A stretch of 64,000 nucleotides of DNA from Psococerastis gibbosa (taxonomy: Eukaryota > Arthropoda > Insecta > Psocodea > Psocidae). Positions within the stretch are counted from its first letter, which is position 1. The number at the start of each line of letters is the position of its first letter. The stretch is taken from positions 21,229,464-21,293,463 of the forward strand of contig OZ020490.1 of the NCBI GenBank assembly GCA_963971405.1. Direction: 5' to 3'. A program made the position numbers and the translations under genes. Below the pieces are notes generated by a model, which did not search any database, was not told the origin of the DNA, and was given only the letters and a program-made list of their open reading frames with translations. Positions 13,939 through 54,410 of the stretch are shown here, in pieces.

Positions 13939-14677
13939 GGCGGGGTTTCCACCGACCTCTCATTGCAGAATGCACTTAGGTTGACGTGGTAGCAGATATT
14001 CAAGACTTAGGCGGGGTTTCCATCGACCTCTCATTGCAAATTGCAAATGACATTGAATTTTTCTTTTTATAGAAATCTATTAAAATGTTTGTACTTAACA
14101 TATCCCATGACGCCATTTTTTAATTTTAGTTTGTTTGTTTGTGATTTCACTCTATGATCATTGATCAATTTTAACTGCGCCATAGAGTAAAACAAAAATT
14201 TCCGTCAATGCCATGTGCATTCTGCAATGAGAGGTCGGTGGAAACCCCGCCTAAGTCTTGAATGTCTGCTACCACGTCAACGTAAGTGCATTCTGCAATG
14301 CGAGGTCGGTGGAAACCCCGCCTAAGTTTTGAATGTCTGCTACCACGTCAACGTAAGTGCATTCTGCAATGAGAGGCCGGTGGAAACCCCGCCTAAGTCT
14401 TGAATGTCTGCTACCACGTCAACGTAAGTGCATTCTGCAATGCGAGGTCGGTGGAAACCCCGCCTAAGTCTTGAATGTCTGCTACCACGTCAACGTAAGT
14501 GCATTCTGCAATGAGAGGTCGGTGGAAACCCCGCCTAAGTCTTGAATGTCTGCTACCACGTCAACGTAAGTGCATTCTGCAATGAGAGGTCGGTGGAAAC
14601 CCCGCCTAAGTCTTGAATGTCTGCTACCACGTCAACGTAAGTGCATTCTGCAATGAGAGGTCGGTGGAAACCCCGCC
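13939..14677. mobile_element. Foldback element with 71-bp tandem arms
   Basis: The ends are GGCGGGGTTTCCACCGACC and its complement, and TTA flanks each side (13936-13938, 14678-14680). The left arm has one full 71-bp unit plus a partial unit (unit starts at 13939 and 14010). The right arm holds seven inverted unit ends, spaced exactly 71 bp, at 14229, 14300, 14371, 14442, 14513, 14584 and 14655. The centre carries a palindrome around TCTATGATCATTGATCA shared with other members. The 3-bp TTA/TAA flank suggests PIF/Harbinger mobilisation, but no transposase is present. Confidence 0.9.
14229..14677. repeat. 71-bp tandem array, about 6.3 units
   Basis: Units are nearly identical (a few substitutions such as GAGAGG/GCGAGG). 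Each contains GGTGGAAACCCCGCCTAAG, TGTCTGCTACCACGTCAACG and GTAAGTGCATTCTGCAATG. Low divergence points to recent expansion or ongoing conversion. Confidence 0.95.
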
Positions 14678-15813
14678 TTAGCAGGGTAACATAATAATAG
14701 GAGGCATAAGTTACAAGTTTTTAAGAATTTGAGCTCTACTGTTCCTATGCTTATGATTAGGCGCAATCTACAGGTATTCTATTTTATTATAATTTTATTT
14801 ATTACTCTAAGAAAATGTGGATTATTGATTGCTGAAGTTACACTTCTATTGTATAGTCACAAGCACATATCATTTTTTAAATCTTTTTTTTTTTAAATTT
14901 GATTTTGTGCAAAAAATTATTTTTTGAGAAATTATGGAAAATTCACCCTCCGATGTATTGGGAACCCTGCCACTATTACTGTGTTTGAATGTATTGGTCT
15001 GCCCGTTCTAGAATATTCAGTCCAATCAATCAATTAAGCAAATTATTTTCTATGGAATTAATAATTGATTAATAGGAAAGCATGTTCGAGTAAACTCGGA
15101 CCGGTTCTTTTTTGATACCCTATTTCGGATTGTTACGCCCTAGGCCTAACACAAGAGCATACGCTCTTCTTGGCCTAGGCTCAGGGCTGAGGACAGACGG
15201 CAAACCTCTGTTGTGTAAATGTTATATCGGTCGTCACGTATGTCCTTAGCCATAATGTATAAATCACGAACCTTGGGTTCGAAGAATGAGAGAGTTTGGA
15301 GACTATGGATAGAGTAGTTAGAGTCGATAGAGTCTAGTGAGACAGAACTGATTCACCATGTGAGTTGATAAACGGTGCAAGTAGGAGTAAGCTCCTATGG
15401 ATGTATGAGTAAGTACGTTATCATGTAGCCCTTACGTAACTAAGTTGCCCCCCCCCCCCCAATTCATTATGTTGTCCCTTGTCCCTTAAATACTTAAGTT
15501 GTCCCTAAGTTATAATGTGGTATTAATGTTTTGTGTCTTAATATAATATAAGGTATTTGGTACCATCCTATAAGCTTATATATAATTCCCCTCTCATAAG
15601 TCCACTCTGAATACTCTAATCTATAGAAGGCCCCAATTAGTGGTATTCGGAGTGTGACAAGTTTTTTTTTTTTTTTTTTTTTAGGATGAATTGGGGGGGG
15701 GGGGGGCAACTTGCGCGCAATGCCATCAAATTCATGATTAAATCTTTGGAATATTAATTAGCAATGCTATTCTTCAATGTAACAGCAAAGGCTTTCACGG
15801 CCTAAGTCGAATG
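14678..15813. other. No gene recognised
   Basis: A minus-oriented fragment of the CCGGTCCGAG repeat family lies at about 15072-15113. A poly(C) run lies at about 15449-15460, and a poly(T) run is followed by poly(G) near 15661-15706. The Gly/Pro-rich short frames come from these runs. Confidence 0.5.
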
Positions 15814-15926
15814 AAGAACCAGTAGAATCCGGGCTGATGGGCCGTGGTCGAAATGAAAGCGAACTTCCACAGTTCGCTTTCATTTCGACCACCGCCCATC
15901 AGCCCGGATTCTACTGGTTCTTTATT
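15814..15926. repeat. Near-perfect 110-bp hairpin
   Basis: Two arms of about 53 bp (AAGAACCAGTAGAATCCGGG through CGAAATGAAAGCGAACT, then its complement) are almost exact inverted copies with only a few bases between. The arm motif GTAGAATCCGGGCTGATG recurs at 52423, and a related form is at 6571. Confidence 0.9.
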
Positions 15927-15942
15927 CTTCAAAGCCTTATGC

Positions 15943-16140
15943 TTCTTCTTCTTCTTCTTCTTCAGTCAACGCCCGTCCTTGGCTGGTAGGCCATTTGACG
16001 CCGTGCCGCGTATAGTAGAGCTGGGCCAATCCCACCTGTGTCTCAGTTCGGTTTTCTAACTCAATGCCAGTGCATCGCTGAATAAGTGATCGGCATTGCC
16101 CTCCCCTTGGAAGCAGAGGGGGCATTCGGATGACTCCTGC
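15943..16140 (-). mobile_element. LINE 3' end with (GAA)n tail
   Basis: On the minus strand, frames read SSECPLCFQGEGNADHLF (a CxxC..H zinc-knuckle-like pattern of LINE C-termini) and, in another frame, LAQLYYTRHGVKWPTSQGRA. The element ends in a GAA microsatellite. The shift between frames shows it is a dead, 5'-truncated copy. Confidence 0.6.
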
Positions 16141-17580
16141 ATATTAATTAGCAATGCTATTCTTCAAAGTCTTATCAACCGATGCTGGTTGTGAAACTGG
16201 TCTTATTATAGAATCAAAACAAATAACCCCCTGCTGATAAGAAACAAGAATCATGTCTTCTGCTGCCAAGGAAGACGAACGCAGACATGTTCCGGTGCTG
16301 GGGTTGGGAGGGGGGGGAGGGGGTTGTAGCTTCCTGATTTTACGATAAACAGGGGGAAGGAGGGTATGGGGGAGTCCGTAATCCCATCAACGCCTGGAAG
16401 AACGCTGCTATGAAATTTCGTTACTCTACAACGATGTCAAGTTGCTACCACATCGTAAAAACCCGGTAAGATAACGCAAAATTCCAATCACTTCTACAGA
16501 CTTCTTTCATTTTCCTGGAGATTAAGATTGGTCCTTAGATGACATGGGTTTTGTACGATAAAGAAGTGGAGGAATGGGGTTTCTTCGGGTTTGGTGAAAA
16601 TTCTAAAGAGTAATTTAAGTTTTGGGGAAGTCCTAGAATTAAGTATGGAAGATCAGAAACTAGATGACTTGGGGGGGGGGGGTGCTTTCGACGATTGCTT
16701 GTTGTTTCTTGTTAGAATGCTCCAGTCCTGGCACACGACTAGTTTTTTTTCTTCCCCGTTAAATTAGGTATCTACCGTACCTGTTTTTTGCTCTTTTGGT
16801 TTTTTCTTCTATTTGACATGATTTTTTCACCAATTGTAATAGTTTGTTGTGTAAGAAGAAACATTTATAAATAACATTTTGGTGACTTATATCAAATACC
16901 TTTATATTCTTGGCGAATCGTTCCGTAGCGGGAAAGCTAATTTAGAGAAATTAATTAATTTCTCGTTCTCCGTCCCCTATATTGGTAAAATTGTTCTTTG
17001 AAGACCTCCTAAAACATATTAAACTTTGTAATACAGAATATATTTACGTACTGAACTATTTTTGATCTATAAAATAATGCGCATCATATTTGGAAGGCAA
17101 AAGTAGAAGACGTCCGCCAGAAATATGACTGACGCGATATAAAATTTTGCAGGGTTAATATATATTATAGTTAAGTTTCCTAAATTTATTGTACTTGTAT
17201 TATAAAATTTTATGTATTTTCGGAGGGTTTAAAAGAATGATTCTGCCAATTTAGTAGTTGAAAATAAGTAAGCATTGAGCTGGGGGCTAAAGGAAAAAAT
17301 ATAGTATAGTAGGCTGATACGTACAAAAAAGGAATACCACTTACTATGACTAAACCAAACACAACCAGAACTAAAAAATCTAGAACAAGAAGTTAATTAA
17401 TTTTGTTAAATTGGCCATGCTGTTTTTCAAAATGGGAGCTCAAATCCCGCTGTCGCATTTTGGGTCCAGGGGTCAAGAATAAATCATTATTGTGCTGCAA
17501 AGGACAATTGTCAGCATAACAAACAACATATTTTGAAATCTCTTGTTTAGGTGCACGAATGTAATAATTATTTGCCTAGG
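16141..17580. other. No gene recognised
   Basis: Poly(G) tracts lie at about 16306-16324 and 16671-16682. The rest is AT-rich with no coding signal or repeat ends that I recognise. Confidence 0.5.
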
Positions 17581-19041
17581 AATTTGAACTCTTAACTTCC
17601 GTCATGAAATGCTTGTGCTCGGTCGAAGGGGGCAGTGAAAAAGTGTCGCTGTCAGGCTTTACATTATCAAAATGATGTAGGGAAATGTGTGTTTCGTGCG
17701 TGAGTAATGGCCATATAGAGCAAGGCGTGGTGCTCCACACGTCCGCCATGTCACCCTGATGAATTACTTACCCTCATGCACGCGTGCCAACTGATTCAAT
17801 ATTCTATCCAATTCTCCCTGCTGGATTACTATCATTATTATTCAAGTATAAATTAATAAGAGATAACTATTTTAAAAAAGAATACCAAATAGATGATAAA
17901 GGGAAGTGCAATACAAGAAACCCAAAAAAAGCTTAAGTTTGAGATAACATATATATATTTTTTTTTTTTTTATAAATTGGGGTACAGGTGTTACCTGTGT
18001 GCACTTAAGCCTATTGTGCCCCCTACAACAAAGTATCCACATCACTTCTACATCACTTTCTCGAGGCCTATCTCCCTCACGAGAGCCAGGATCTTGAGGG
18101 GATTCAGAAGTGGTAGGTCTTTTACATGTAACTGCAAGCTTTCCGAGCATGCTGCTCTTCTTCGTGCGATTGCATCGCATCGTATCGCAGGTCCTCCGCA
18201 CCTTCATTGCAGAATCTGTAAGACTATAGTTGTCTCCCTAAGAGACTCCAGATATTTAACCCCAGGACCAAAGACGCCAAGGCCTGTTCTTGGTTTGGTA
18301 CTTCCTAGCCTAGAGCCATCAGTGAACCGCTTGATTGTGTGACTATTGAGAATTCCTGCTGATTCGCAGCATTCTTTCATTGTCCCTAATATAGTTTCGA
18401 ATTCCCTCCTAAAACAGTATTTTGGATGGATTCTATCGCTTGGCATATCCAGGCAGTGGTCAGACGTAGTCAGAGAGGCTGAGTCTCTCTTAATTGCCCT
18501 TCCACTCCTAGTAATGCCATATCTGCTGATGTTTCCACTGCAACATGGAGGGGTGGGAAGTCCAGTACTATCTCCATTGCTGCAGTGGGACAGGATTACA
18601 TAGCCCCTGTAAAGCATCATGTTAGAGAATACGGGCTTCTGAATGTAGCCATAATTTGGATTATTCAGAGAAAAATTCTCATGTGGTTTGATTTTGCCAT
18701 GTCCATGAAGCCATGACCAATGGTATGGTTACAGCAGGAAAAGACAGGCAGTCAGTCAACATATAACAAATACGGAGAGAGATTAAACAAAGTACTTATA
18801 CCAAAGATATTTAATGAACTTCCTCCACAAATGAAAAAATTTAAACTTATGGGTGAGTTAAAAGCGGGTATAAAAAGATGGCTGGTCAATGGGAGTTAAT
18901 AATAATAATAAAAACTGACATTAAAATAACAAGGTAAAATAAAATAAAAATAAATGATTAAGCCTTGTTTAGCAGCACTGTATGAGTCTTTTGTCCCAAA
19001 TAAGCGCTAGCTTGGGGATGCGGGATGGTATTATTATGTAT
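17581..19041 (+). mobile_element. Second copy of the 683-bp retroelement, split
   Basis: It starts and ends at the same bases as the copy at 10184-10866 and is nearly identical to it, apart from an 804-bp LINE insertion at 17954-18757 and a short deletion in the AT-rich tail. The long direct repeats seen around the first copy are not evident here. Confidence 0.8.
17954..18757 (-). mobile_element. LINE fragment (RNase H) inserted in the retroelement
   Basis: The 8-bp direct repeat AACATATA (17946-17953 and 18758-18765) flanks the insert. A poly(T) stretch at the left end marks the 3' tail of a minus-strand element. The minus frame at 18204-18620 contains IKRFTDGSRLGSTKPRTGLG, the start of the RNase H domain of I/Jockey/R1-type LINEs with its first catalytic Asp. 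The rest of the RNase H core is missing, so there is an internal deletion as well as 5' truncation. Confidence 0.75.
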
Positions 19042-19635
19042 TGTATTTTTGTAATATATGCTCGTTGTCCAGGGAATACTGGACAAGGAAAAGAAAGAAG
19101 AAAAGAAAGATTATTATTATTACCAGAAGGACGTGTGTGAAGAATATAAAAGAGAGCAAGAAACTAAGGTTGGATATTATGCTCCCTGCAGTAGTAATAG
19201 TAGTAGCAGTATATTATATAGTCTAAAATGACTTAGGCCTCATTTGAGCCCTTTTATAGCGGACCCTACACGGTCAGTAATAGAGTGACCCCGACTTGGC
19301 AAACCTACGTCAGCCCGATTTCTTTGTAAAAGTCCACGATGCGCCTGGTCTCCATCGTGATAAAATTGATGTTTCTGAGTCCTGCCCGAATTCTGCTACG
19401 ACGTGCCAGCGAGTCTCTTCGACTTCCTCGCAGTCGTTGACATCTTTGATAAGTACCTACGTGCCAACTGTTTCAATATTCTATTCAATTCTCCATGCTG
19501 GATTACTATTACTATTATTATCATTAGAAGAAGGGCCTGTGTGTTGAATAGAGAAACTATGAAACTGAGGGACAATGCTCCCTGTGATCTTACATTGAGA
19601 ATGGTGTAACGTATATTAGATGATATAGAAAAACT
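19042..19635. other. No gene; shared repeat module
   Basis: Positions about 19461-19510 (CGTGCCAACTGTTTCAATAT, then CTGGATTACTATTA) match a stretch of the 683-bp element (about 10386-10440). AT-rich triplet runs are followed by two similar tails (about 19108-19195 and 19505-19600), both containing ATGCTCCCTG. Confidence 0.5.
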
Positions 19636-19707
19636 GGGTTTGGCGGGATTTGAACCCACGATCTACGCCTAACCGGGGTGTCGTCTTAACCACTGGACTA
19701 CAAGCCC
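19636..19707 (-). repeat. tRNA-like SINE head, family A copy 2
   Basis: It has the same 72-nt cloverleaf as 3051-3122, with scattered substitutions that weaken the acceptor stem (CAAACCC at the 3' side). It is a decayed copy. Confidence 0.75.
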
Positions 19708-19854
19708 CGACAAAAACGGTTGATGGTGAAACGTTATGTGGTATGTAGGGATTGGACGTTGACCCAAGCTATGGAGAACAGAATCATTGCATTTGAGGTT
19801 TGGATATAGATATTATTGCTGCGCACGACCGAGAGAGCTGGAGCAGGATGCAGG

Positions 19855-20040
19855 GGGTTGCTGCCAACCAATCGTTGAGATTGCAACCTCAGTAAGGCCA
19901 AGGTCTTGTGGTGACTGGATACAGTTAAGAAACAACATACTTCGGCCATTGGCTTGGTTGTTGGTTCGAGTTCTACACTTCCTACATTTTCTGGCCATGC
20001 TTCGGAGGGCATGTAAAGCAGGCGGTCCCGGGCCTTCCTA
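19855..20040 (+). repeat. SINE family B relic
   Basis: The 3' part (GGTTCGAGTTCTACACTTCC, then CATGCTTCGGAGGGCATGTA and GGTCCCGGGCCTTCCTAG) matches the SINE at 38124-38305. The sequence before it does not match the tRNA-like head of the other copies, so it is a rearranged copy. Confidence 0.6.
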
Positions 20041-21251
20041 GTTATTTTATTTTTATTTATTTTTATTTTTATTTTTTGTCCTCACTGGTTACTCCACCAA
20101 GTGAGGGAAATATATTGAAAAAAGTACGTTACAAAGAGGATATCGGCGCAGGTACCTCCGGATGCAATATCCAATGAGGCCCTGGACCCAAACAAATACA
20201 TGCCATCTGTATGTTATAATCCAAGGGACAATAGAAGGACTGAAGGCTCCCCGCTGAGGAATGCAAGATTTTTCCGTTGCTTATGAAAATGATAAAAAAG
20301 GAGTTGTGGTTGGCGCCCAAAGGCATTTTGTCCAAATTACTATTTATTGTAGGTAGGCCTGTGGAAACTGAGGTCTGCTCACGTAAACAATGATCTCGTT
20401 TTCTCCTGTCTCATGTTTTGTGGGTGTTTCATTATTCAGTTTCCGCTTTACTTGTCTTGTCTTAAAATTTTGAAATGCTCTGTAATTTGAAAATGTTTGT
20501 TAAATTGTTAGCTTGAGTAGGTAAGTTACGGTTGTGCATGTTGAGGGGCGGTTTTATTTTTCTGTTACACACTTTGGGTCAATGCATATTCCGTTTTTCC
20601 GTTTATAGCCTAAAAGCCAGGCTAATTGACGACATTTACTAAAATTTCTCAACAAACCAGCAAATAATTTTACTTTCGAGAGATTGTAATTTTTCCGACT
20701 GCTCGAATTCCTATGTCTTTTGCGTTGTACGTAAATATAGCAATATTTCCATTGATGACTTCTCAAATCCGCCCTAAAAGATCAATTCGTGCATAGCATT
20801 AATGCTTTCAGCGTGGAATATGCTTGAACCCTTGAACCAGGTACGGCTGCGAGAATTACCCCTCCTCCTTCCTACCTATGTATATAACCGTGCCAACTTA
20901 TTCATTATTCAACCCACGCAGTTGGATTACTGCCGGCTCCATCGCAGCATCGCCTTTGACGTGGTCTTGCTTCCTTTGGGTAAATTTTGAAGTCTCGGCC
21001 TACACGTGTGCCTATATTGAATCATTAATCGAGTTAGAGGCTGATGGGGTAGAAACCAACACACCTCGGTCAGTCGGTCTCACACTTAAAGGGCGGTTCC
21101 CGCCAACTGTGGCCAAACATATGGTTAATTAATTGGTTACGCTATGCTGTTTTCCAAAATGTTTGGAAAGATTACCCTTGACTCCAGGTTAATCATGTAA
21201 GAAATAAATAAATCGTTTATCAAATAATGAGAATTAGTGACTGATACTTTG
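20041..21251. other. No gene recognised
   Basis: T-rich low-complexity sequence at 20041-20080, then unassigned sequence. Several 60-80 codon frames on both strands show no motif. Confidence 0.45.
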
Positions 21252-21259
21252 GTAACTAA

Positions 21260-21542
21260 TAGGGCTCTATATTAGAGAGGTATTGTCATCCGCCATTTTG
21301 AATCCATTTTAAGTCTGGTGTATCAGCAAAGCATTGGGTGTTTACCTATTTATTTTTAGAAATTTATCGTTTATTTATTATTAATTAAAAAAACGTTCTA
21401 TCAATTAGGGAAGTGTTTAATAAAAGAAATACTAAAACGTGTTTTTGTCCTTTTCAATCTTTTACTTTCTTACAATACTTACCATATAGAAATTATAGGA
21501 TTCAAAATGGCGGATGACAATACCCGAGTATATAGTGCCTTA
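21260..21542. mobile_element. hAT-like MITE, 283 bp
   Basis: An exact 8-bp duplication GTAACTAA lies at 21252-21259 and 21543-21550. The ends start TAGGGC and TAAGGC, and a subterminal inverted repeat is perfect over 25 bp (CCGCCATTTTGAATCC and its complement lie within it). The interior is non-coding. A sister copy lies at 25745-26040. Confidence 0.85.
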
Positions 21543-21569
21543 GTAACTAACTAACTAACTAACTAACTA
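21543..21569. repeat. (CTAA)n microsatellite
   Basis: A short tetranucleotide run directly right of the MITE includes its target duplication. Confidence 0.7.
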
Positions 21570-21811
21570 CTACAGTATTTCTATGGATTGAGTTAACTAG
21601 CTGCTTAATATGTGAGTGGATAAGAGCTGATTGAACTAGATATATGCCACTGGATGATACCTACTGCAAAGAAACAACAATATGAATTTTAGGTTTTTGC
21701 AAATATTTTAATGTTAAAATAAATTACAAATACGGTCTAATTTAGCCGTCTTACGAAGCAGAGTAATCTCGCGTCATTGAAATGCTGTCGCAATTCTGTA
21801 ATGAGCAGAAA

Positions 21812-22221
21812 CAGAGCATATTTTAAGGAAGCCCCATTGGGGCAAGCGTGCCCCCTGTGAAGTGATTTTGCCCCCTACTTTTGGGCATATTCACCCACAG
21901 ATATTGGGCACAAATTTCAAATTCCAAGACTAACAAAACTAGAAATTTGAAAGAAAAAAAAAAAGTTAAAAGTTACGTTGTCCGTCGTATTTTTGGCGCC
22001 AATTTTGTTTTTAACGTTTTGCTTTTTGAAATAGAAATGGTTTTGGTAATCATGAAAAAGTGTGATTATTTAGAACTAGGTATTATTAAAAATAATATAC
22101 CTTATCTGAACTTATTAATGGAAGGAGGGGGGGGGGGTTGGATATAAGCGAAATTTACAGTATATATAGAATAGGATTTCAATTTGTGCCACCCAGTGAA
22201 AATTTCTTAAAATATGCTCGG
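21812..22221. mobile_element. hAT-like MITE, 410 bp
   Basis: The ends CAGAGCATATTTTAAGG and CCGAGCATATTTTAAG are inverted repeats. An exact 8-bp duplication AGCAGAAA flanks it (21804-21811, 22222-22229). The interior is non-coding, with a poly(G) run at about 22127-22138. An inverted sister is at 24413-24783. Confidence 0.85.
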
Positions 22222-22229
22222 AGCAGAAA

Positions 22230-22945
22230 CCAAATGAATAATGTAAGTTAATTCATTTATTAGAACACACTCCAATGCCATGGACCATATTAAATTTCTG
22301 AATGACTACCCGGTACTGGTTACTGGCATGTAAGAGTAAATTAATATCTTAAATTGAACAATTTTGAGTATTCAGTATTTATTAATTAATGAATAGCATA
22401 ATACAATCACTAAATATCAAAGGGCCCCACTAAGTGCACCCTGTAAAGGGGACTTATGTCGTGGCCCATATGAATTCTGTATTGCAAAATACTCGCTAAA
22501 AAATTGTAACCATAGTTATTCCTTCCAATTATCCAAATTAAGGTAATACAATAGGTTGAATTCGAGAGGGATTCAACCATATTTAGCTTAATCAGATTCC
22601 AATGTCTATAATTTCTATGGCATTTACTGGTCGATTGGCTTATAATGAATGAATTGTTTTTGTTGATTTGCGGTGGTGATGGTGTGGTCGGTGGATGATT
22701 TAGGTAAGGGGGGGGGGATTTTTATTTGAACATGTGGGGTTCCCATCATGACTGTATTTCCGATTGGCCGCCATTCAATCAATTAAAGCTCTAGGGTTTC
22801 TAATTTTGGGAATATGCATTATCCATTATTCAAAAAATTTCAAAAAAAAAATCTAATAGTCTGCTTGCACCCTGATTCCTGATTGGTCCACCAGAGGGAA
22901 CGACAACCTCAATAAAGATGGTGATTTCCTATCAGAAACAATGAA
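22230..22945. other. No gene recognised
   Basis: AT-rich sequence with a poly(G) run at about 22708-22717. Nothing else recognised. Confidence 0.5.
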
Positions 22946-22954
22946 TAAATAAAT

Positions 22955-23162
22955 TAATATTGACTTTTTTGTTCTATTACTAAACGGAGTTAAGGCTATA
23001 CAACCCTCCCTTACACTCAAGTACTAGTAGGAAGACCCGGGACCACCTGTCTTACATACCCTCCGAGAATGGGCAAAAAATTTGGCAAGTGTCGGACTCG
23101 AACCAACAACCTTTCGGGTGAAAGTCGGAGTCTGTACCATTGCTCTACATGTCCTGACCATG
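22955..23162 (-). repeat. SINE family B copy, near complete
   Basis: On the minus strand a tRNA-like head (GTCAGGACATGTAGAGCAAT, TTCACCCGAAAGG, GGTTCGAGTCCGACAC) is followed by a body with GGTCCCGGGTCTTCC and a tail TTTAGTAATAGAAC plus A-rich sequence. The A-box- and B-box-like motifs are spaced as in pol III tRNA-derived SINEs. Confidence 0.75.
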
Positions 23163-25053: not shown

Positions 25054-25204
25054 GGCGCCAATCTCACCGACGTCTATATAGTGATAGTAATGGTGATATT
25101 GACGTGATTGACGTGGTAGCAGACATTAAAGACAGTCTAAAAATGTCTGCTACCACGTCAATATCACCATTACTATCACTATTGACGTCGGTGTGATTGG
25201 CGCC
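25054..25204. mobile_element. Foldback element, about 151 bp
   Basis: The ends GGCGCCAATCTCACCGACGT and complement are almost a complete palindrome. The arms share TTGACGTGGTAGCAGACATT with the 13939 family but carry a different middle cassette (ATAGTGATAGTAATGG). TTA occurs outside both ends, one base off at the left. It lies about 130 bp upstream of the first gene exon. Confidence 0.8.
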
Positions 25205-32308: not shown

Positions 32309-32705
32309 GGCGCTTATTCCACCGACCGGCTAGGGCTAAATACAAATACGGTGACGTGGCAACAGACATTCAAGACTTAGGTGGGGTTTCCACCGACCTC
32401 GCATTGCAGAATGCAAATGACTTTGCCGGAAATGTTTGTTTTACTCTATGCCATATAGTTAAAATTGATCAATGATCATAGAGTAAAATCACAAACAAAC
32501 AAACTAAAATTAAAAAATGGCGTCATGGGATATGTTAATTACAAACATTTTAATAGATTTCTATAAAAAGAAAAACAAACATTTCCGTCAATGTCATTTG
32601 CATTCTGCAATGCGAGGTCGATGGAAAACCCGCCTAAGTCTTGAATGTCTGTTACCACGTCACCGTATTTGTATTTAGCCCTAGCCGGTCGGTGGAATAT
32701 GCGGC
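32309..32705. mobile_element. Foldback element, about 397 bp
   Basis: The left arm starts GGCGCTTATTCCACCGACC, a second homologous start (GGTGGGGTTTCCACCGACC) follows exactly 71 bp later at 32380, and the right arm mirrors both. The centre contains the shared palindrome around GATCAATGATCATAGAGTA. The middle cassette of the outer unit (CTAGGGCTAAATACAAATAC) is shared with 54037. Confidence 0.85.
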
Positions 32706-32804: not shown

Positions 32805-32923
32805 TTAAAAAATGATGAGATTTTTGTTTTAAGGAGACTTTTATGTAGATACTTAATTTATAATAGATAAGTTAAGTATCTACATAATAGTCTCCTTAAA
32901 ACAAAAATCTCATCATTTTTTAA
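32805..32923. repeat. Hairpin with about 52-bp arms
   Basis: The arm containing GATGAGATTTTTGTTTTAAG and GTAGATACTTAA is repeated in inverse with very few mismatches after a short loop. It starts 99 bp beyond the foldback element. No terminal target duplication was identified. Confidence 0.85.
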
Positions 32924-32985
32924 TGCACAAATGATGAAAATATGACAAGTGGAATAACCGCCTTAAACCATATAATGCTCTAAAC

Positions 32986-40230: not shown

Positions 40231-40865
40231 CAGGGATTCTCAAATGGTGGGCATTGCCCTCCCCCGAGAGCCATGGGTCTAATTTAGGGGGCGAGAAATA
40301 AATATTGACTTTGAAGTCCCATTACTAAATTATTTAATTTTTTTTATAAGTTAGGTACGAAAACCTTAGCATTTTTTTTTTAACTTAGAAGAGAAGAATA
40401 AAAACTGGACTTAGCGGGATTCGAACCCACGATCTACGCCTAACCGGGGCGTCGTCTTAACCGCTCGACCACAAGCCCGCACAAGAGCAGCTAATGAATA
40501 TTCACTGCTTATATACTCGTTTTTTGACATGATTGCCTCTTCATCCAAAAGTTACTTTAAAAGTCAGTGTTATATACTCCATATAATACTGCAATAATGT
40601 GTAGAAGGGAAGAGTTTTGGTTTTTCTCAAGTTGACGACAGTGAGATATAACATCATTACCTTTTTTATTTCATTTTATTTTAAGTTGCATTAACAAAGC
40701 CAGCGTTTTCACTATTTTTAATACCTATCGGATTTGAGTTGGCAGGGTGCTGCAACTTCCCACAGATATTGGGGGTGGGGGAGAGGGGGGGGGGGAGAAA
40801 TAGGCAGGGAGCTCGTTACACATTTTTCCTAGGGGCCACGGATTTTTTTTTCTTGAGAACCCCTG
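40231..40865. mobile_element. hAT-like element containing a SINE head
   Basis: It begins CAGGGATTCTCAAA and ends in the complement of CAGGGGTTCTCAAG. The flanking 8-mers do not match well. Poly(G) lies at about 40781-40796. The tRNA-like sequence at 40407-40478 is inside it. Confidence 0.65.
40407..40478 (-). repeat. tRNA-like SINE head, family A copy 3
   Basis: It has the same 72-nt cloverleaf and GGT anticodon position as 3051-3122, with a few changes. Downstream blocks near 40560-40600 are shared with the first copy but in the opposite orientation. Confidence 0.75.
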
Positions 40866-44945: not shown

Positions 44946-46074
44946 CTTCTCAATGCCGCCTCAAATATTGCAGCACAATGAACTGGTTCTATTCGACTTT
45001 ATTTAGTTTCTTTCCCCCATTGCTTCTTCTGCAAGCGTATCGCTGAGATATATTAAAGTGATCCCATTCTGCATCATATATTCTCACAGAAAGCTCGCGG
45101 GCCTATTATATTACGTACTACTCAAAGAAGAAAATCTAACGTACCGTAAGTGCGTACAACTTTCTTAAAAAAAAAAAAAAAAAAAAAAAATGGAAACGAA
45201 AGCGACCTTTGGCTGAAGAGGTATCCCTTTCTTCCCAAAATTTTCGGAAGCATTAGATCCCATTTTTTGGCGAGAGTTTTACTTTCCCTGGAATTCTAAC
45301 TCCTTTCTGGCAACTTTCCAGGAAATCATCCGTCAAAAGTGAAAGGTCCATGTCGCTTTCCTTTGTTGTTGTTTCTTGGGTTGTCATTAAAATAAAAGAT
45401 GTGTACAACTTATTTCTTACCCTGAGTGCTAAGAGAGGGGGGGGGGTGTATATTTAAGGAGTCATTTATCATGAGAGGTTTCCCTTGTTTCATATATTTT
45501 TCTGAGGCAAATCGACTTTTAAGTGCAGTGAACAATGGTAAAGTTTATTTTTACCCCAATCAATGTCGAGTGGAGAGCTACAGTAGTTTGTGGGAGGGAT
45601 GCAAAATGAAAAAAAATCTCCGAACTTTGTAGATTAAGAGCCCATGACTACCAAATTTGCCTCATTTTGTAAAAGCTGAAAATTTCTTACATTTTGTTTG
45701 AAATATTATGACAAATCACCACCGTCCAATGCCAAACACTGGTCGGGAACCCTAAAATTATTTTATTCTTTAACCATAACCCCATACCTTAACCCCATAG
45801 AGAGGTTTGGGGGTTGCAAAGAATGTGTTTGACAATTGGTGAAATGGCTTTTGTTATTTACCCAAATAACATACCTATAAATTTAAGCTTTGGTATTATC
45901 ATATTAAATTTTTTAGGGGTGTCTGGCCACGGGTTGCTACCAAAGAAAGTGTCTGGCAATGGATGGGGATGATTTCTTACATTATTTCAAAGAAAATATG
46001 AAAACATTACGGTTTACCTGATAAGGTAGTCGACCTCCTATTTTAGGCACATTAAATAATAATAATAATCTTGA
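44946..46074. other. Intron 1, nothing recognised
   Basis: A poly(A) run lies at about 45167-45190 and a poly(G) run at about 45437-45446. No coding signal. Confidence 0.5.
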
Positions 46075-46175
46075 CATTTTGTTGTTCCATTACTAAGCCA
46101 ACCTAGTTAGGGCTATAAAGCCCTCTCTTACACTCAACCAGTATGACCCGGGACAGCCTGCTTTACATGCCCTCC
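46075..46175 (-). repeat. SINE family B, 3' part
   Basis: The minus strand shows GGCATGTAAAGCAGGCTGTC, CCGGGTCATACTGG and a tail GGCTTAGTAATGGAAC, matching the bodies at 22955 and 38124. The tRNA-like head is missing. Confidence 0.65.
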
Positions 46176-46593
46176 GATAACTACCTGATATGATTCGTGC
46201 CCCAGCTCAGGGACTGATCCAGCCCATTTGTTGGGTTGACTCAAAATAAAATAAACTCATTTTGTATCGATTAAATTGTAACGGGATTAAATTACTCACA
46301 AGACTTACTCAATTCGGGGGAGGGGGCAGCTACCCCCCTTTGTATTCGTTCTTGCCCAAGCCACGATAGACGGAACTTCATAGTATCCATTTCCTTGTTA
46401 ACATTGTTATACCTGTAGACATGAACTGACAAATTTTCAGCTTATACAAAATTAGGTAAGTTTCGCAGTCATAGGCAATTTATATAGTCAACTTACGTAA
46501 GCTAATAATTGTAAAGATTTTTACAATTAAATTTTTTTAAGCGTACGTTCTCAATCATTACTTACGTTCTATTTTTTTTTTTTTTTTTTGCAG

Positions 46594-46686
46594 CTGGTGA
46601 GGACACGGTGATGTGCTTCAATATTGACTACTTTCCAAGGGAAGAATACACTCCTGACCCTAATGACAGTACTATGGCAATACCTT
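46594..46686 (+). CDS. Stargazin-like gamma subunit, coding exon 2
   Basis: This encodes residues 82-112 and the first base of codon 113, completing the first extracellular loop. It holds the second conserved cysteine, C89, which in this superfamily pairs with the one in GLW..C (C78 in exon 1). A sequon N-D-S lies at N105. The acceptor follows a poly(T) tract of about 20 bases and TTGCAG; the donor is TT|GTAAGT. Both junctions are phase 1 and keep the frame through AIP-Y into exon 3. At 93 bp it is easily missed by frame scans; it has no start of its own. Low similarity elsewhere makes the splice logic the main evidence. Confidence 0.8.
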
Positions 46687-46741
46687 GTAAGTACCTACTG
46701 ACATATTGCGTATTTTATTATTCATATAGCAGCAGCCGAAC

Positions 46742-46990
46742 ATGGTGATTTGGGATTATTAAAATACCGGGGTTTATTCAATTGTTTTAAACAAATGAGT
46801 ACAGAATGCGCGGGAAATTCAAATTGATACATTAATATTTTTGGTGAGTATTTAATTTATTCTCTCTAAGATGTAGACACAATAGTTAAAATTCTTATTA
46901 TATTTCAAAATTCTACCTGTACATTTTAATGTAAATTAGCGTTTCCTTCAATTATTAAGCAATGCAACCATTCTCTTGTATTCTAATAAT
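46742..46990. repeat. Relative of the 38486 TIR element
   Basis: Blocks AAATACCGGGGTTTATTCAA, ATGCGCGGGAAATTCAAATT and CTTATTATATTTCAAAATTC match 38447-38750. The right inverted end is not preserved. It lies 55 bp past the exon 2 donor. Confidence 0.65.
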
Positions 46991-47201
46991 AGAATTTTTC
47001 ATCTGACCATTTTCACGACTGCAGAGCCAGGAATTAATTAATTTCGTCAAAATAAAAAATACAAAATATTTTGAAACTCTGCCTTAAACCTCAATTTTAC
47101 TAAATGAAATTCATAACTCATAGCGCTTTTGGCAGCGGTTTTCCTTTTCATCCCCAAGTCAAACCCCCTCTTCAGAACACTAGGGAGGGTCTGCAGACGA
47201 C

Positions 47202-48063
47202 AAGAAACGGCCCGAGTTTACTCGAACATGCTTTCCAATTTATAAATTAGCAGATATAGACATGTGTAATTTCATAGGAAATAATTTCCCTGTGGTTAAA
47301 TTTCAGATCCCTCGAGGGGGGGGGGGTCCACCTCAATATATTAAAAACCCCTTAAAACTTAATGGCATATTCTGGAACGAACAGACCAATACATTGTAGC
47401 CGTAGTAACAATGACACATGGCACGTAATGTATTGGAGCGTGAATTTGTGAATTTTCCATAATTTCTCAAAAAATAATTTTTTGCACAGAAGCAAATATT
47501 TTCTTGGGAATGCAACCTGTCCGTTTTGTTACCCTATTGAACACCTAAAACATACCTGAAGGTAGAAATCACCGATAGAAAGGTTCCACAGAAAAATTAT
47601 TTTTTAGTCATTTTTCATGAAAATTGAGTTATTTTTATTTTTTTTCCCTCGAAGCAAACTATCAAGGGGCAAGCGACCCCCCCCCCCCCCCATTTTGTTA
47701 ACATTAATAACGATTACAATATATGTGAATTTAAAAGAAATCGTTGGAGCCGTTTTTGAGGAATAATGTTTTAGATGTTTTTTTGGATTTTTTTGAGAAT
47801 AAACCACCCCAAATTGAGTTAGCCCAAAATATAAAAAAATCTTCTCGAGGTATGATGTTTGTGAACCTACATGCAAAATTTCATCAAAATCGGCCGGGTA
47901 GTTTGCCCGGAAATCGATGAACAGACAGACATACAGACAGCCATTTCGTAAAAACCACTTTTTTAGGTTCCTGGGACCTGTAAATACGTTGAAATCTCGG
48001 AATCGAAAATTTCGACCATTACAAAGCTTTTCTTATACTAGGCTACGTATAAATTGGAAAGCA
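47202..48063 (+). repeat. Interspersed repeat family R, copy 3
   Basis: Collinear with 23293-24130, from AAGAAACGGCCCGAG to ATAAATTGGAAAGC, with poly(G) near 47317 and poly(C) near 47680. Confidence 0.75.
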
Positions 48064-48225
48064 ATAACAGGAACATGGAAGACCAGAATGGCGAAGTTTC
48101 CTCTTGATAAGATATAGAATACTATGGTTATTCGACAGGCCAAAGAATTTTCCTATCATGCCATTATTTGTATTTTAGCCAATTACGCTTATACTAAAAA
48201 TCTACCAAAATTTTTAAAGGCTTAA

Positions 48226-48568
48226 GAGGACTTGCAACGTAGATAATGAGCACCCCAAAATTTGTTGTTTCTATTGACTTTTTAATTTTTATTTAATTAA
48301 CAAAGCAAGTTATTAATGATTTGGCTCATGTAAGTTGTAGAAGACTACTTCATGCATCATATAATAGGAAATATTAAATTGTTGGTACCTTAGTTTCTTT
48401 ATGTTAATTTCGCGTAGAATAGAATTTTTGGAAAAACTACAATACTGAAAAGTCCCGATTACATTATGCACGACGTATACGTAGTCTTCTACAACTTCCA
48501 AACTATTTATAACTTGCGCAGTTAACCAAAAAAAAATTGAAAAGTATTTAATTTTCCAACATATCCTC
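48226..48568. mobile_element. piggyBac-like MITE, 343 bp
   Basis: TTAA lies at both borders (48222-48225, 48569-48572). The ends GAGGACTTG and GAGGATATG are inverted repeats, and subterminal arms (GCAAGTTATTAATGATTTGG; GTAGAAGACTAC) fold back. The interior resembles 26597-26974. Confidence 0.75.
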
Positions 48569-48572
48569 TTAA

Positions 48573-50360
48573 AAATAAAAGAACAAAATAATGAAATTCA
48601 CGCAGGCTACTATTCCAATTTCCTCTTCCCCTTAAATTTTGAACCCACAGATCTGATCATCTCTTGATGTAGGTTGTCAAATTTAAAGTCAGCTCTTTAT
48701 GCCGCTGGGAGTATGCTACGAACATTATGACAATTCAAAATTTATTTTACAGCAGAGTTGTCAGTCAAGGAAAGCCCTGGTGGCGCAAAAAAAAAAAAAA
48801 AAAAAAAAAAAAAACTGAATGAGGCGAGAACGGCGGGAAAAATTCTAGTCACGTAGTTGACCCCTTACTGCAGAAACATCGATATTACCACTTTTAATTT
48901 ATTGCTGTCCATACAGTGTAAATACACTATACACACCTTTTATTTATTCTATAGTGTATAAATTAGTCATTAGCCTTCTCCAGATTTCCTGTGTTTTGTC
49001 CAATGACTTTGTTTGAATATTCGCGGGAAAGCCAATGTTGGTACCAAGTTATAAATTATTCCTTGTTAAAAAAAAGAGTTTTTGTCGCAGCTTGTCAGTT
49101 GATCAATGATGCCGATTTATATTTTACCATTTTCTTTTAATATTCTAATATTTATTTTAAAAAGATTCATTACCAGAGTAAAGTGGACCAATACTACCCC
49201 TGCTTCCTCCCTCAACTTTGACCTCTATTATGCGTGGTTCCATGGTATATAAAAATAAGGATAAAGTAGTTGAAGTAGGTACGCACAGACTTAGAATACA
49301 ATAGAAAAACCCTGAAATTGATCATCCAATACTTTATTAATTTATGAGTTGCTTTCTTTAAAACGGAGACTTGGGGCTCGCCATAAAAGGAAAAATTATC
49401 CGCCTGAATCCTGAAACCTAATGCTGGGCACCTTATCTTCATCGGTACGGGAATCGGCGGCGGCGAGCATGAAAACCCCTAGCAGTCCTCAGAACTAGAC
49501 CCTCATTGCTTTTTTGTTTTTTAATTTAATTAATCAATATAATTTCCTTCTGTTCATCTTTTTTTAAACCCTGCAAGGTTGGTATTGGGGCGGCAGTCCG
49601 ACATTCGGAATTGAGTTGCTCGGTTTACAGACAAATTATGGAGTGAGCACTAAATATACGTTTGAAACAGACTCCTCTTAAATTGATCGGTGGGAAAGTT
49701 TGAAACTCAGCAGCTGCTTCAAAAAGGGAGCGAATAAAATACGTGGGTTAAAGTTTATTGGACTTCATTTCGGAATTTCTGATCACAAAATTATTTCTTT
49801 TTAATGGTATTTTCCTTCCATTCTCTTCCATCAACATACTCTAGTGACTGGACATGGATATCGGTGGTCCTGTTCCTAGAAAAGACGGTTATTCGCTAGT
49901 TAGGCAGACTGTTTTTTTAGACGGTCCCCGGGCAACCTCATTGCCCAGTGCGCTCCGTACGCACCTGATAACAATTTGAAGTACATGGAGTAGACAGGGT
50001 AAAGTCATTTTCAGTGTGTTTTAAAATGTAATAGAAAATATGAGGAGGAAAATTAGTGTAAACATTAGATATCACAGGAAATATCAATGAAATAATATGT
50101 ATTATAATGTATGTCTACAGTATATACTAATATCGTTGAGTTGTCAAGAATATCAGGACAAACAGAATTTTTTTCTGGGTATTTTGATACATGGTATGTA
50201 CCTCATTCTAACACAGATTAGACAATTAGTGAATTTGATATGTACGAAAAACGATAGGTGTGGCAGTCCGCAGGAAAGAGTTCAAGAACTGTCGCCAATT
50301 GGCGTTAGTGAAAGCCATCACATGCCATGTGTCGAAATGTTGCATTTGGAGCATTTCTGG
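48573..50360. other. Intron 2, nothing recognised
   Basis: Contains a 28-base poly(A) run (48787-48814). Otherwise AT-rich with no coding or repeat signal that I can pair. Confidence 0.5.
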
Positions 50361-50363
50361 TAA

Positions 50364-50795
50364 GGCGCTTATTCCAAATACGTCAATAGTCAATAGTAAA
50401 TGTAGTATTGACGGACATTTTACTCTATGCCATAGTTAAAATCGATCAATGGTCATAGAGTAAAATCACGCGCTGCAAACAATAACAAACAAAAATGGCG
50501 TCATGGAATATGTTAAGTACAAACATTTTAATAGATTGTTTATAAAACAGTTTTCATCCATTAAACAGATCGGTGAAGGTCGATCTTACTTCGGATCTCT
50601 TACTATTATTAGGTTTTATTAAAAATAATAAGTGTACGTAGAAAACAAATACAAACAAAATTACAAAAATAAATACGTGTCAATAGAAGAAAAGTGATCA
50701 ATAGTTGAAAAAACAAGTGAAATGTAGTGTATCAATAAAAAATTGAAATGTCCGTCAATACCACATTGACTATTGACGTAGGTGGAATAGGCGCC
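50364..50795. mobile_element. Foldback element, 432 bp
   Basis: GGCGCTTATTCC and GGAATAGGCGCC ends are flanked on both sides by TAA (50361-50363, 50796-50798). The arms carry a different cassette (GTCAATAGTAAATGTAGTAT). The centre holds the shared palindrome (TCGATCAATGGTCATAGAGT). Confidence 0.85.
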
Positions 50796-51395
50796 TAATT
50801 TAATGGATATTTTTGACGGCGATATTTCGTGTGAAAGTTGACTTTGATTGCTCCGGTTTTTTTTTTATTTGAAAATAATACTATGTATAGTAAAATACAG
50901 AACGTTCATCAAACTATATATGAACATTGCTTCTAAGGGATTTTTTTAACTCTACAATCGATATATTCGATTAAATTAAATTTTTTACACTTGTAAGGTT
51001 TCTTTCCCAGAGAAACCCTCTTTTTCGGCATTAACTAATTTTTATAAAAGTAGGCTACAATGGTGGATCATAATCACAAGACCCTATGCAATGTGTTAAA
51101 TACGATTATAAGAATGCAGCATCAAGTAAGCCTACGGCATGGCCCTTATTTCGAACTTACCCTCTATCATGTGTTTTACGTAAATCCTGCATTATTTGGG
51201 ATTGACATTTTTTGGCGCCACATTTTTCAAAAATTTTGAAAATATAAAAAAAATTACAAACCCAACACTTGTTCTTAATCATTTTTCCAATTTTTCATTC
51301 ATGTTTGATTGATTTCTAACGCAAAAAGAGTTGGCTACTTAAGCCCCCACTATTAATCATTGGATTATTGTAATAATTTCTTTCTGTTCTTGTAG

Positions 51396-51785
51396 ACACC
51401 GTAACGAAAGCGTCAGGTTTCTTCGTAATCGCGACGCTTCTTCTGCTAGCTGGAGAACTCTGCTGCGTGTGCGGCCATATTTCCCGTCAACGTCGCCTCC
51501 TCACCTTTATATCCGGTCTCATCTTCATCATTTCCGGTTTGTTCATGCTTATCGGCCTAGTTATGTACATCTCCGTGCTGAAAGCTGAAATTGGCGGGAA
51601 GCTTCGACCGAGGTCGCAACTGCAGCCACCACTGTTTACATTTCGCTACGGATATTCGTTTATTCTCTATGTTTCCGGTTTTATTGCCACGGAAGTGTCA
51701 GGGACATGTGCTGTGTTTTTGTATATTTATTGGCACCAACGTGAGTGGCTTCATAAGAAGACGAATTTGCGGAGAAAATTGTCGG
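51396..51785 (+). CDS. Stargazin-like gamma subunit, coding exon 3
   Basis: This encodes residues 113-243 (both end codons split), the main body of the protein. Membrane segments are visible at about residues 120-141, 148-172 and 198-224. Between segments three and four is KAEIGGKLRPRSQLQPPLFT followed by RYGYSF, a stretch I know to be strongly conserved in arthropod stargazin-like proteins. After segment four comes IYWHQREW and a lysine/arginine-rich cytosolic start. The acceptor is TTCTGTTCTTGTAG and the donor TCGG|GTAAGC, both phase 1. The open frame continues 29 bases into the intron (to 51814) before a stop, which marks the exon end. This exon gives the strongest family evidence in the window. 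Confidence 0.92.
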
Positions 51786-52422
51786 GTAAGCTAACTGTGC
51801 AATCTCTTTCGTAAGTTTTTAGTCGTGTGTTTTGTTAGTTTTGGAGACATGTGTCACTTGCATATACTGTACTGTAGCTAACTGCATGAGAATTAAGAAT
51901 TGGCATCATCGTAATTGACGTAAGGTATGGCATTAACCTCTCAGTATACAAGTAGTCAGCGATGTTTATTAGTAGGCATAGATTATTGAAGATATTGAAA
52001 AATTGTTTATCAACTGTGATTAATAGTTGTTCATTGTTGCATTACGCTAGACGTAAGTGGAACCTTTTTTTTGCCCTTCACATGATAAACCCTTTGAAAC
52101 TCTGTAAACCTCTATTTTTTTAACATCGTTTTAAAATGGTTTAAATAATCCCCCGAGTAAGTTATTCTTTTGCGTTGTTGCTAGTCCTGTTGATAAGCAA
52201 TATTTCAACTTGACCAGGCAACAGAATTCTGTTAACTGCCTTAATCGCTCGCAACAACTGTTTGCTGACAGTGATTTAAGTAAACAAACTTTGTGTCGGC
52301 CCTTCCCTTCCCTGCTTGTGTATTTCGACCGCATCTCTGCCCTGTGTTGTCCTACACGACAATCCAGTTCTGGCTCCATGTATTGCACATTAATGACAAA
52401 GCTACCAGCAAGATTATGTTAC
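51786..52422. other. Intron 3, nothing recognised
   Basis: Overlapping frames on opposite strands near 52131-52458 have no motif. Confidence 0.5.
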
Positions 52423-52512
52423 GGTAGAATCCGGGCTGATGTCCCGTGGTCGTTCTGAAAACGTGCATCCAAACATTTCGTCGACATCATCACTACGTAG
52501 ACTTCTAAGATT
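52423..52512. repeat. Foldback repeat fragment
   Basis: Contains GTAGAATCCGGGCTGATG and CGTGGTCGTTCTGAAA, as at 15814 and 6571, and GTAGACTTCTAAGAT, as near 4268. Confidence 0.6.
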
Positions 52513-52554
52513 GTAGACTCTTACCGGAACTTGGGTTAAGTCATGCTTACACCT

Positions 52555-52810
52555 ACATTCGTCACCCTAAAGACAGAAGGGCGTACCATCAAGAACGAAA
52601 TTTCGGCATAACTTAATTGCGTGTAAAGATGCTTCTGCGCATAACAGTTAGATACGCCCTCCTAATCGAACATTTTGGCCTTTTTGTCACGCATGATGTT
52701 TTTTAGGCACATGCAAAGGTAGAACTTACGACAAGGTCTCTAAATCTGGTCAAAACTCAACTTCCCCAAAAATATTCGTTACGCCCTTCTGACTGTAGGG
52801 TGTCGAATGT
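52555..52810. mobile_element. TIR MITE, 256 bp
   Basis: The ends ACATTCGTCACCCTAAAG and ACATTCGACACCCTACAG are inverted repeats that continue through CAGAAGGGCGTA (about 30 bp, few mismatches). The target duplication is not clear, so the superfamily is open. Confidence 0.75.
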
Positions 52811-53337
52811 CAATGGTCAGTTCATACAGTAGTTCAGTTCAATTCAGACCATAAAATAATATATTTAAACTGGGCGACATTTCTGTAATCAAATTTGAAG
52901 TAAGTTTTGAAGTTATTGAGCGCAGTAAGGAGGCAGAGTTCATGGCGGTGTTTTTGGGATACATGCCAAATAGTATTTTTTTCTTTTTTTTTTAACTTGG
53001 AGCCCGGCTTCTGCTGTTTGTTGTAGCTACGCCTCTGATTAGGGCTTGGTATTATGAAAGTTAGGACTGTCGCCCTGTGAAAAATCTTTAAAATATGCTG
53101 TGGGTCAGTTTGTCAGCATTGTCCCATGTATGCGGTGTGGGTTGACGTGTGCCAGTTTGGCAAGAGCTAAAATTCATACAGAAACAATACCTATAATGTT
53201 AAAAAATCTATAAGGTCATTGGCAAGGCAAGGTTCAATCAATCAATCAATTTTAATATCCCAGTACAGTAATACAGTTTTACAAATTCAACATTTTCCTA
53301 TGGACCACAAACCTTCCTTTAAATAATAATAATCTTA

Positions 53338-53472
53338 GGCGCATATTCCACCTGCGTCAATAGTAAATGTGGTATTGATGTGGTAGCAGACATTTTTAGA
53401 CTGTCTTTAATGTCTGCTTCCACGTCAATACCACATTTACTATTGACTATTGACGTAGGTGGAATAAGCGCC
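53338..53472. mobile_element. Foldback element, 135 bp
   Basis: Almost entirely palindromic, GGCGCATATTCCACC to GGTGGAATAAGCGCC, with TTA and TAA outside. The arms keep TGTGGTAGCAGACATT and carry the cassette GTCAATAGTAAATGTGGTAT. It is the smallest member of the 13939 family. Confidence 0.85.
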
Positions 53473-54033
53473 TAAGATTGTAACTCAGTAGTAGTGGCTT
53501 TTCTTTATGCTATAGCTGTTCAACTATGGGTACGGCCCCTGTTAGCAAAGCTAATCTGGCACCTGTACTCTGTATTCGAGTCAAACCCTAATCTCTTCCT
53601 GGCTCATTGGAATCCATAAATCAAAAGGAATGCTGAAAAGCATTGTAAGAAGATATGGACCTCATACGTAGAGGTTCCACAATAGAGTTAACACAGCAGC
53701 ACCTTGTGCAGTCATAACGGCCCTTTGTTGCATTATGTAGGTTAATTACCCTCTATGTATCCTGTCTTGAGTTTCAAGCACAAGCACAAGGATTTCAAAC
53801 GACTGTGTGAATAATAAATTTCTGTTTATTCCACATTACAATGACACTGATGGATTAAAGTATGAATAGACATCTACATAATGAAACGGGTTATACCAAT
53901 CAGAAGTTTTCGAACATATGATTGTCAAAGGCCCGGTACACACGGACAATATGTCAAGGGAATAAATGGATTTGTGGTTGGTTGGTGCAAAAAATAGTCA
54001 AATTCTGAACACACTTCCGAAGATTTTTGGCGC
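53473..54033. other. Intron 3, nothing recognised
   Basis: Unassigned intron sequence between two foldback elements. Confidence 0.5.
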
Positions 54034-54036
54034 TAA

Positions 54037-54410
54037 GGCGCCCATTCCACCGACGGGCTAGGGCTATTTACAAAAACAGTGACGTGGTAGCAGACATTCA
54101 AGACTTAGGCGGGGTTTCCGCCGACCTCGCATTGCCGAATTGACGGAAATGTTTGTTTTCCTCTATGCCATAGTTAAAATTGATCAATGATCATACAGTA
54201 AAATCACAAACAAACAAACTAAAATTAAAAAATGGCGTCATGGGATATGTTAAGTACAAACATTTTAATAGATTTCTATAAAAAGAAAAATTCTAATTTC
54301 CGTCAATGTCATTCTGCAATGCGAGGTGGAAACGCCACCTAAGTCTTGAATGTCTGCTACCACGTCACCGTTTTTGTAAATAGCCCTAGCCGGTCGGTGG
54401 AATGGGCGCC
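54037..54410. mobile_element. Foldback element, 374 bp
   Basis: The ends GGCGCCCATTCCACCGAC and complement are flanked by TAA on both sides (54034-54036, 54411-54413). The second module start is 71 bp inside the left end (GGCGGGGTTTCC at 54108). The centre and cassette match 32309-32705. Confidence 0.88.

What the first reader, a model, noticed from the sequence alone, without database searches (positions are those of the whole stretch)
13939..54410. Foldback family whose arms are built from 71-bp modules with swappable cassettes
At least six elements (13939-14677, 25054-25204, 32309-32705, 50364-50795, 53338-53472, 54037-54410) share termini GGCGnnnnTTCCACC and an inner constant block GACGTGGTAGCAGACATT, or close forms. 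Between these constant ends lies a cassette that differs between members: CTAGGGCTAAATAC type in 32309 and 54037, CTCATTGCAGAATGC in 13939, GTCAATAGTAAATG in 50364 and 53338, ATAGTGATAGTAATGG in 25054. In 13939, 32309 and 54037 the module measures exactly 71 bp, and in the last two a second module start follows the first after 71 bp. This looks like termini that iterate and exchange their middles. TTA/TAA flanks suggest PIF/Harbinger mobilisation. The family may be undescribed.
Basis: partly seen in the sequence, partly recalled or inferred. Interest (0 to 1): 0.75.

Follow-up and report, generated by a model that had tools for sequence, protein, structure and literature searches.

The report
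Stacked-terminus Harbinger MITE family, 71-bp modules
A small parasitic DNA element, abundant in this genome, often carries a second full set of ends stacked 71 bases outside its own, and one copy in the window has repeated that end six times; the kind of element is known, the stacked ends are the unusual part.

Summary
All six elements exist at the stated places. The 71-bp step holds in 20 of 21 close same-strand pairs among 100 listed termini.

Best reading: non-autonomous PIF/Harbinger elements (MITEs). The long ones are two-storey: a core unit carrying the leader and first codons of a Harbinger-type MADF gene, flanked on each side by a 71-bp outer arm with its own terminus. Related MADF frames lie in the same genome, one behind a GGCGGATATTCCACT terminus. 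Flanks are identical 3-mers in 15 of 25 scored elements, 11 of them TTA or TAA.

Wholesale cassette swapping is not supported: 99 of 100 listed cassettes join one graded series and both arms match in 24 of 25 pairs. Limited reassortment of the 4-base tip remains possible. Arrays of three or more modules gave only 36 exact matches, about 30 loci; 13939, with six outer modules in one arm, is among the longest. No transposase bracketed by these ends was found.

The parts
13939..14677 (.). Composite element with expanded right arm: 1 outer module left, 6 right; flanks TTA/TTA
13939..14009 (+). Left outer 71-bp module (terminus, cassette C, block, CAAGACTTA)
14010..14251 (-). Inner core unit with GGGT-tip termini and remnant of MADF gene start (ATGGCGTCATGG.. 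on - strand at 14116)
14252..14677 (-). Six tandem 71-bp outer modules (6 x 71 = 426 bp)
25054..25204 (.). Short hairpin MITE, terminus GGCGCCAATCnCACC, flanks TAA/TTA
32309..32705 (.). Composite element: outer modules 32309-32379 and 32635-32705 (left tip CTTA, right tip CATA, cassette A2), inner unit 32380-32634; flanks GAA/GTA
32805..32962 (.).
50364..50795 (.). Single-storey element: TACGTCAATAG-type TIR joined directly to the MADF core, no block; flanks TAA/TAA
53338..53472 (.). Short hairpin MITE, tips CATA/CTTA, flanks TTA/TAA (inverted)
54037..54410 (.). Composite element: outer modules 54037-54107 and 54340-54410 (tip CCCA, cassette A), inner unit 54108-54339; flanks TAA/TAA

Best explanation
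These are non-autonomous members (MITEs) of a PIF/Harbinger family. They move by cut-and-paste when a Harbinger transposase and its MADF partner act on GGCGnnnnTTCCACC ends and insert at TTA/TAA (inferred from family knowledge). Three forms share related ends: short hairpins (TIR, cassette, block, short loop); single-storey core elements; and two-storey composites, in which a core unit with its own termini sits between two 71-bp outer arms. The core unit is an internally deleted Harbinger-type element that keeps the leader and first codons of the MADF gene. The composite most likely began when a core element inserted at a TTA in another member; copying one arm onto the other then made both sides mirror images, and the whole moved as a unit from its outer ends (inferred). 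The outer arm then diverged by ordinary mutation under constraint at its ends (inferred). Rare further copies of the 71-bp module, six in the 13939 right arm, arose by unequal exchange or slipped gap repair between the stacked modules (inferred).
For: Termini, block and arms are far above control. Identical 3-bp flanks occur in 15 of 25 scored elements, 11 of them TWA (with 25054 and L018:140); base composition alone would give about 2%. The core encodes MASWDMLSTNILIDFYKK; L028 and L029 carry open MADF frames starting MASWDMLSTTILIDFYK; for L028 Pfam MADF E is 8.2e-10. L030 has a related MADF frame behind terminus GGCGGATATTCCACT, with an alignable leader: score 36.4 against mean 8.4, sd 2.8, maximum 25.6 of 300 single-base shuffles. 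The 71-bp step is 20 of 21; in those pairs the inner tip is GGGT in 19 of 20 while the outer tip varies. Inner junctions mirror each other: TTA on the left in 12 of 13, TAA on the right in 14 of 14 matched (five of those 14 from 13939). 99 of 100 cassettes are linked by steps of 10 edits or fewer of about 29; in 200 scrambled sets the ten largest links were all 13 or more. C/A3 intermediates exist, e.g. C15:7738206. Arms match: mean distance 1.28 against 9.02 permuted, 25 pairs.
Against: No transposase bracketed by these ends was seen. Ten loci chosen for a DDE match, plus the DDE frame in L030, were scanned for the terminus, but these stretches were cut by place and do not cover every element to both ends. 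The predicted empty hairpin centre CAAGAC-TTAA-GTCTTG was not found with up to 2 mismatches, and none of the 50 symmetric hairpins listed of 62 has the length a TTA or TTAA centre would give. Of 25 scored elements, 4 have inverted TTA/TAA flanks and 6 have neither, which simple TSDs do not explain. L022's right inner junction lacks the TAA.
Confidence: 0.72

Rival explanations
1. The second storey arose by tandem duplication of one TIR within an element (slippage or gap repair), not by nested insertion.
For: Outer module C and the inner TIR are alike over about 49 bp up to TTGACG. Arrays of 3 or more modules exist (36 matches). The predicted empty hairpin was not found.
Against: Inner units lack the block and CAAGACTTA tail of the module, so a plain duplication does not give the module. 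Module boundaries carry TTA before GGCG, the mark of an insertion site.
Confidence: 0.3
2. One reading: termini stay constant and whole cassettes are exchanged between elements.
For: A2-type cassettes occur with tips GGGT, GGGA, CGGT, CATA and CTTA. TACGTCAATAG-type and GACCTC-type TIRs each occur with the block and with the core. One cassette of 100 (C1:2640586) is unrelated to the rest.
Against: 99 of 100 cassettes form one graded series, with intermediates; 78 of 100 have exactly 29 nt between the anchors. Cassette A goes with tip CCCA in 15 of 17 joined arms and 18 of 19 arms. Both arms match in 24 of 25 pairs.
Confidence: 0.15
3. A Galileo/Foldback-like element of another superfamily that only resembles Harbinger.
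For: Long arms with internal tandem repeats, as in Galileo and Tetris (PMC3573991, PMC4079207).
Against: Mostly TWA 3-bp flanks, GG-starting ends and a MADF-gene core.
Confidence: 0.04

Closest known systems
PIF/Harbinger transposons and their Tourist-like MITEs (PMC9710019: passages; PMC2836001: start of abstract in a search listing)
   Same: Short TIR, 3-bp duplication, second gene with Myb/SANT/MADF domain, abundant non-autonomous derivatives
   Different: Two full termini stacked 71 bp apart on each side; matching transposase not identified here
MtPH-A6-4 of Medicago truncatula (PMC2213677: passages and section 7)
   Different: There the repeat is described as subterminal, with the TIR a separate feature; here the 71-bp unit contains the whole terminus and a TTA
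CMITE-IN of Acropora corals (PMC2872659: abstract and sections 13 and 15)
   Same: A MITE inserted into a proto-element at its target motif, and the composite appears mobile; CMITE TIRs are less conserved than the interior
   Different: piggyBac-like, TTAA target, about 70 copies estimated in one species; here Harbinger-type with 46,633 block matches
Galileo (PMC3573991: abstract and section 7) and Tetris (PMC4079207: abstract and section 19)
   Same: Foldback-like arms with internal tandem repeats; Galileo arms also grow by recruiting inner sequence
   Different: Galileo is of the P superfamily; repeat units about 210-220 bp; not Harbinger

Membership tests
PIF/Harbinger | 3-bp target duplication, typically TWA | tested here: met
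   15 of 25 scored elements with identical 3-bp flanks (TAA 6, TTA 5, TTT 2, AAA 1, TAT 1); 4 inverted, 6 neither (one inner unit dropped, elements with one broken end not scored; the pairing script slightly favoured identical flanks)
PIF/Harbinger | TIRs beginning with GG | tested here: met
   GGCGnnnnTTCCACC, 32,704 exact copies
PIF/Harbinger | Second gene with Myb/SANT/MADF domain | tested here: met
   Core encodes the N-terminus of a MADF protein; open MADF frames in L028, L029, L030 (Pfam for the L028 and L030 frames). The core's own 20 residues match no Pfam family
PIF/Harbinger | DDE transposase in an element with the same ends | tested here: inconclusive
   150 DDE_Tnp_4 matches scored of 220 candidates; ten such loci and L030 read, none seen bracketed by these ends, but not all read to both ends
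MITE | Short, no complete gene, high copy number, TIRs and TSD | tested here: met
   133-739 bp among the pairs (118 bp for L018:140); 46,633 block matches
Foldback-like arms (FB, Galileo, Tetris) | Long inverted arms built of internal tandem repeats | tested here: met
   13939 arm; about 30 loci with 3 or more modules. A minority form: 36 exact matches against 15,881 arms
Galileo membership | P-superfamily transposase | not tested
   No P-type transposase was searched for; the MADF core and 3-bp flanks speak against it

The most novel reading that the evidence does not exclude
A Harbinger MITE lineage with stacked, alternative termini. The transposase can use the outer or the inner pair, and the 71-bp homology between storeys lets ends be added, lost or rewritten, so the element renews its termini by exchange (tip changes on one cassette, the six-module arm). 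Terminus stacking would then be an evolved route to escape titration or repression of one end type.
Probability: 0.15. Interest if true: 0.55.

Novelty: new variant of a known kind. Interest (0 to 1): 0.36.

Why it matters
It shows a Harbinger MITE that became very abundant in a two-storey form, with a complete second terminus outside the first. That gives a natural series, from one to six stacked ends, for asking how end number and end sequence affect transposition and how foldback arms and tandem repeats begin. It also ties a very large MITE family to a MADF-gene relic of its parent.

Tried and rejected
Finding the autonomous partner: 150 DDE_Tnp_4 matches scored, 113 MADF matches, ten transposase loci read and L030. 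None was seen bracketed by these ends; several of these stretches do contain MITEs of the family (L018, L019, L022, L026). A pattern for the core frame continued by a P-x-L/F-W stretch gave 0; the real frame reads KKNEFLY, so that pattern was wrong.

Nested-insertion empty site: 0 of the exact centre with up to 2 mismatches. 62 symmetric hairpins were found, 50 listed: 49 have a one-base centre by length and one a six-base centre.

Block in viral contigs: 0.

Literature: four answered searches, 15 or 20 papers listed each. I did not see a described Harbinger family with whole termini stacked at 71 bp, but most listed papers were not opened, the library lacks most subscription papers and the species is unknown.

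Rows dropped or limits: one search lists 100 of 15,881 arms, all from the first 5 Mb of C1, and its pattern demands exact anchors; one search lists 100 of 32,704 and demands GGCG, while many inner termini read GGTG. Of the 30 readable middle modules, 27 were typed into (three C12 rows left out by oversight). In one search, 24 pairs were listed; one is the inner unit of a composite (L010:5224) and was dropped; 25054 and L018:140 (TAT/TAT) were added; L002 (right end gone) and two L010 elements with a degenerate left end were not scored as separate elements. The arms overlap in part.

Full report
What is there. They fall into three forms. Short hairpins (25054, 53338) are 151 and 135 bp: a terminus, a variable stretch, the block GACGTGGTAGCAGACATT (or a close form) and a 14-nt loop. 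A single-storey element (50364) has a TIR joined straight to a core and no block. Two-storey composites (13939, 32309, 54037) have an outer 71-bp module, then a second terminus (GGCG or GGTG), then the core, and the mirror of this on the other side. In 13939 the right arm has six outer modules, 426 bp in all, and the left has one.

Scale. The genome is 409 Mb in 68 contigs and unnamed. The block has 46,633 matches with up to two mismatches against 13 for the reversed control. The terminus has 32,704 exact matches against 29. Terminus and block in one arm: 15,881 against 0. If each element has two blocks, this is of the order of 20,000 elements (estimate).

71-bp step. Among the 100 termini listed, 21 close same-strand neighbours occur: 20 are exactly 71 bp apart and one is 64. 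In those 20 pairs the inner tip is GGGT 19 times and GCGT once, while the outer tip is CCCA 11, CGGT 5 and four others once each. The pattern demands GGCG, so inner termini that read GGTG, common, are not counted. Three or more modules in a row gave 36 exact matches, which group into about 30 loci; the window's element gives three of them, a number shared only with one locus on C14. Of the 30 matches whose text was shown, 22 contain GCAGAATG, the type of the inner terminus (counted by eye).

Cassettes. One search lists 100 arms. The stretch between TTCCACC and GACGTGGTAGC is 29 nt in 78, 30 in 10, 31 in 5, 28 in 5, 36 in one and 23 in one. Linked by fewest edits, 99 of 100 join with no step above 10, and one lies 15 away. 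When clusters were scrambled, the ten largest links were all 13 or more in 200 trials; observed, only the outlier's link (15) and one link of 10 exceed 8. This is a diverging series, not a set of unrelated inserts. Both arms carry the same type in 24 of 25 pairs, mean distance 1.28 against 9.02 when right arms are permuted. Against this reading: A2-type cassettes occur with tips GGGT, GGGA, CGGT, CATA and CTTA, while cassette A is with CCCA in 15 of 17 joined arms (my grouping of its rows) and 18 of 19 arms. Exchange at the tip, for instance from the inner GGGT terminus, is possible. The two sets overlap in part.

Parent. The core contains ATGGCGTCATGGGATATGTTAAGTACAAACATTTTAATAGATTTCTATAAAAAG, which reads MASWDMLSTNILIDFYKK (translated by me and found as a protein). 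A chimeric query found MADF frames with a like start. L028 and L029 begin MASWDMLSTTILIDFYK and run on as MADF domains (Pfam PF10545 E 8.2e-10 for L028). L030 holds a related gene with two MADF frames, the first behind the terminus GGCGGATATTCCACT, with a leader that aligns to the core's leader (score 36.4; single-base shuffles mean 8.4, sd 2.8, maximum 25.6 of 300). So the core is most likely a deletion derivative of a Harbinger-type element. PIF/Harbinger elements carry a transposase and a Myb/SANT/MADF gene, short TIRs and typically 3-bp duplications (PMC9710019, passages). A transposase with these ends was not found; this is the main gap.

Flanks. One search lists 24 pairs; one is the inner unit of a composite and is dropped, and 25054 and L018:140 are added. 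Of these 25, 15 have identical 3-bp flanks (TAA 6, TTA 5, TTT 2, AAA 1, TAT 1), 4 are TTA/TAA inverted and 6 are neither; about 2% identical would follow from base composition. The sample mixes loci chosen by block, by place and by transposase, and the pairing script gave a small bonus to identical flanks. The inverted flanks recur at the inner junction of composites, TTA on the left in 12 of 13 and TAA on the right in 14 of 14 that matched the search, five of them from 13939; L022's right junction lacks the TAA.

Origin of the second storey. A nested insertion at a TTA, followed by copying one arm onto the other, explains the TTA before the inner terminus and the mirrored junctions. The simple form of the model predicts an empty palindromic centre; it was not found, although 2,068 short hairpins and 62 symmetric ones exist. 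A few hairpin loops do contain GACTTA (L011:8171 and, on the other strand, L011:8345; C1:4294184; L011:8345's reads GACTTATTAAT). I give this origin about 0.6 and tandem duplication about 0.3. A composite made by insertion into a proto-element has a precedent in coral CMITE-IN, and tandem repeats in Harbinger elements have one in MtPH-A6-4.

Verdict. The finding is a genuine, very abundant Harbinger-type MITE family with stacked termini, a variant of a known kind. The cassette-exchange idea is largely not supported.

Noticed in passing
window 3050-3122, 19635-19707, 40406-40478 (minus): Three tRNA-Thr(GGT)-like sequences; pairwise 92% alike over 100 bp, 88% over 85 bp, and 81% over 154 bp that reaches past the tRNA on both sides: possibly a tRNA-derived repeat.
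   Followed up: partly
window 58291-59412 (minus): 373-aa open frame with a retroelement integrase-like H..H..C..C stretch (motif recalled, not searched).
   Followed up: no
window 32805-32962: Near-perfect hairpin of a sister terminus family (GGCGGTTATTCCACT).
   Followed up: partly
25054, 53338, L005:1423, L010:3642 and inner junctions of composites: TTA on one side and TAA on the other, i.e. inverted rather than direct flanks, in 4 of 25 scored elements and at the inner junctions; unexplained.
   Followed up: partly
G000:C1:2640586-2640632: One arm with proper ends but a cassette unrelated to the other 99 listed: the one candidate for a true cassette replacement.
   Followed up: no
window 2389-2464: 17-bp tandem array, 4.5 copies.
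   Followed up: no
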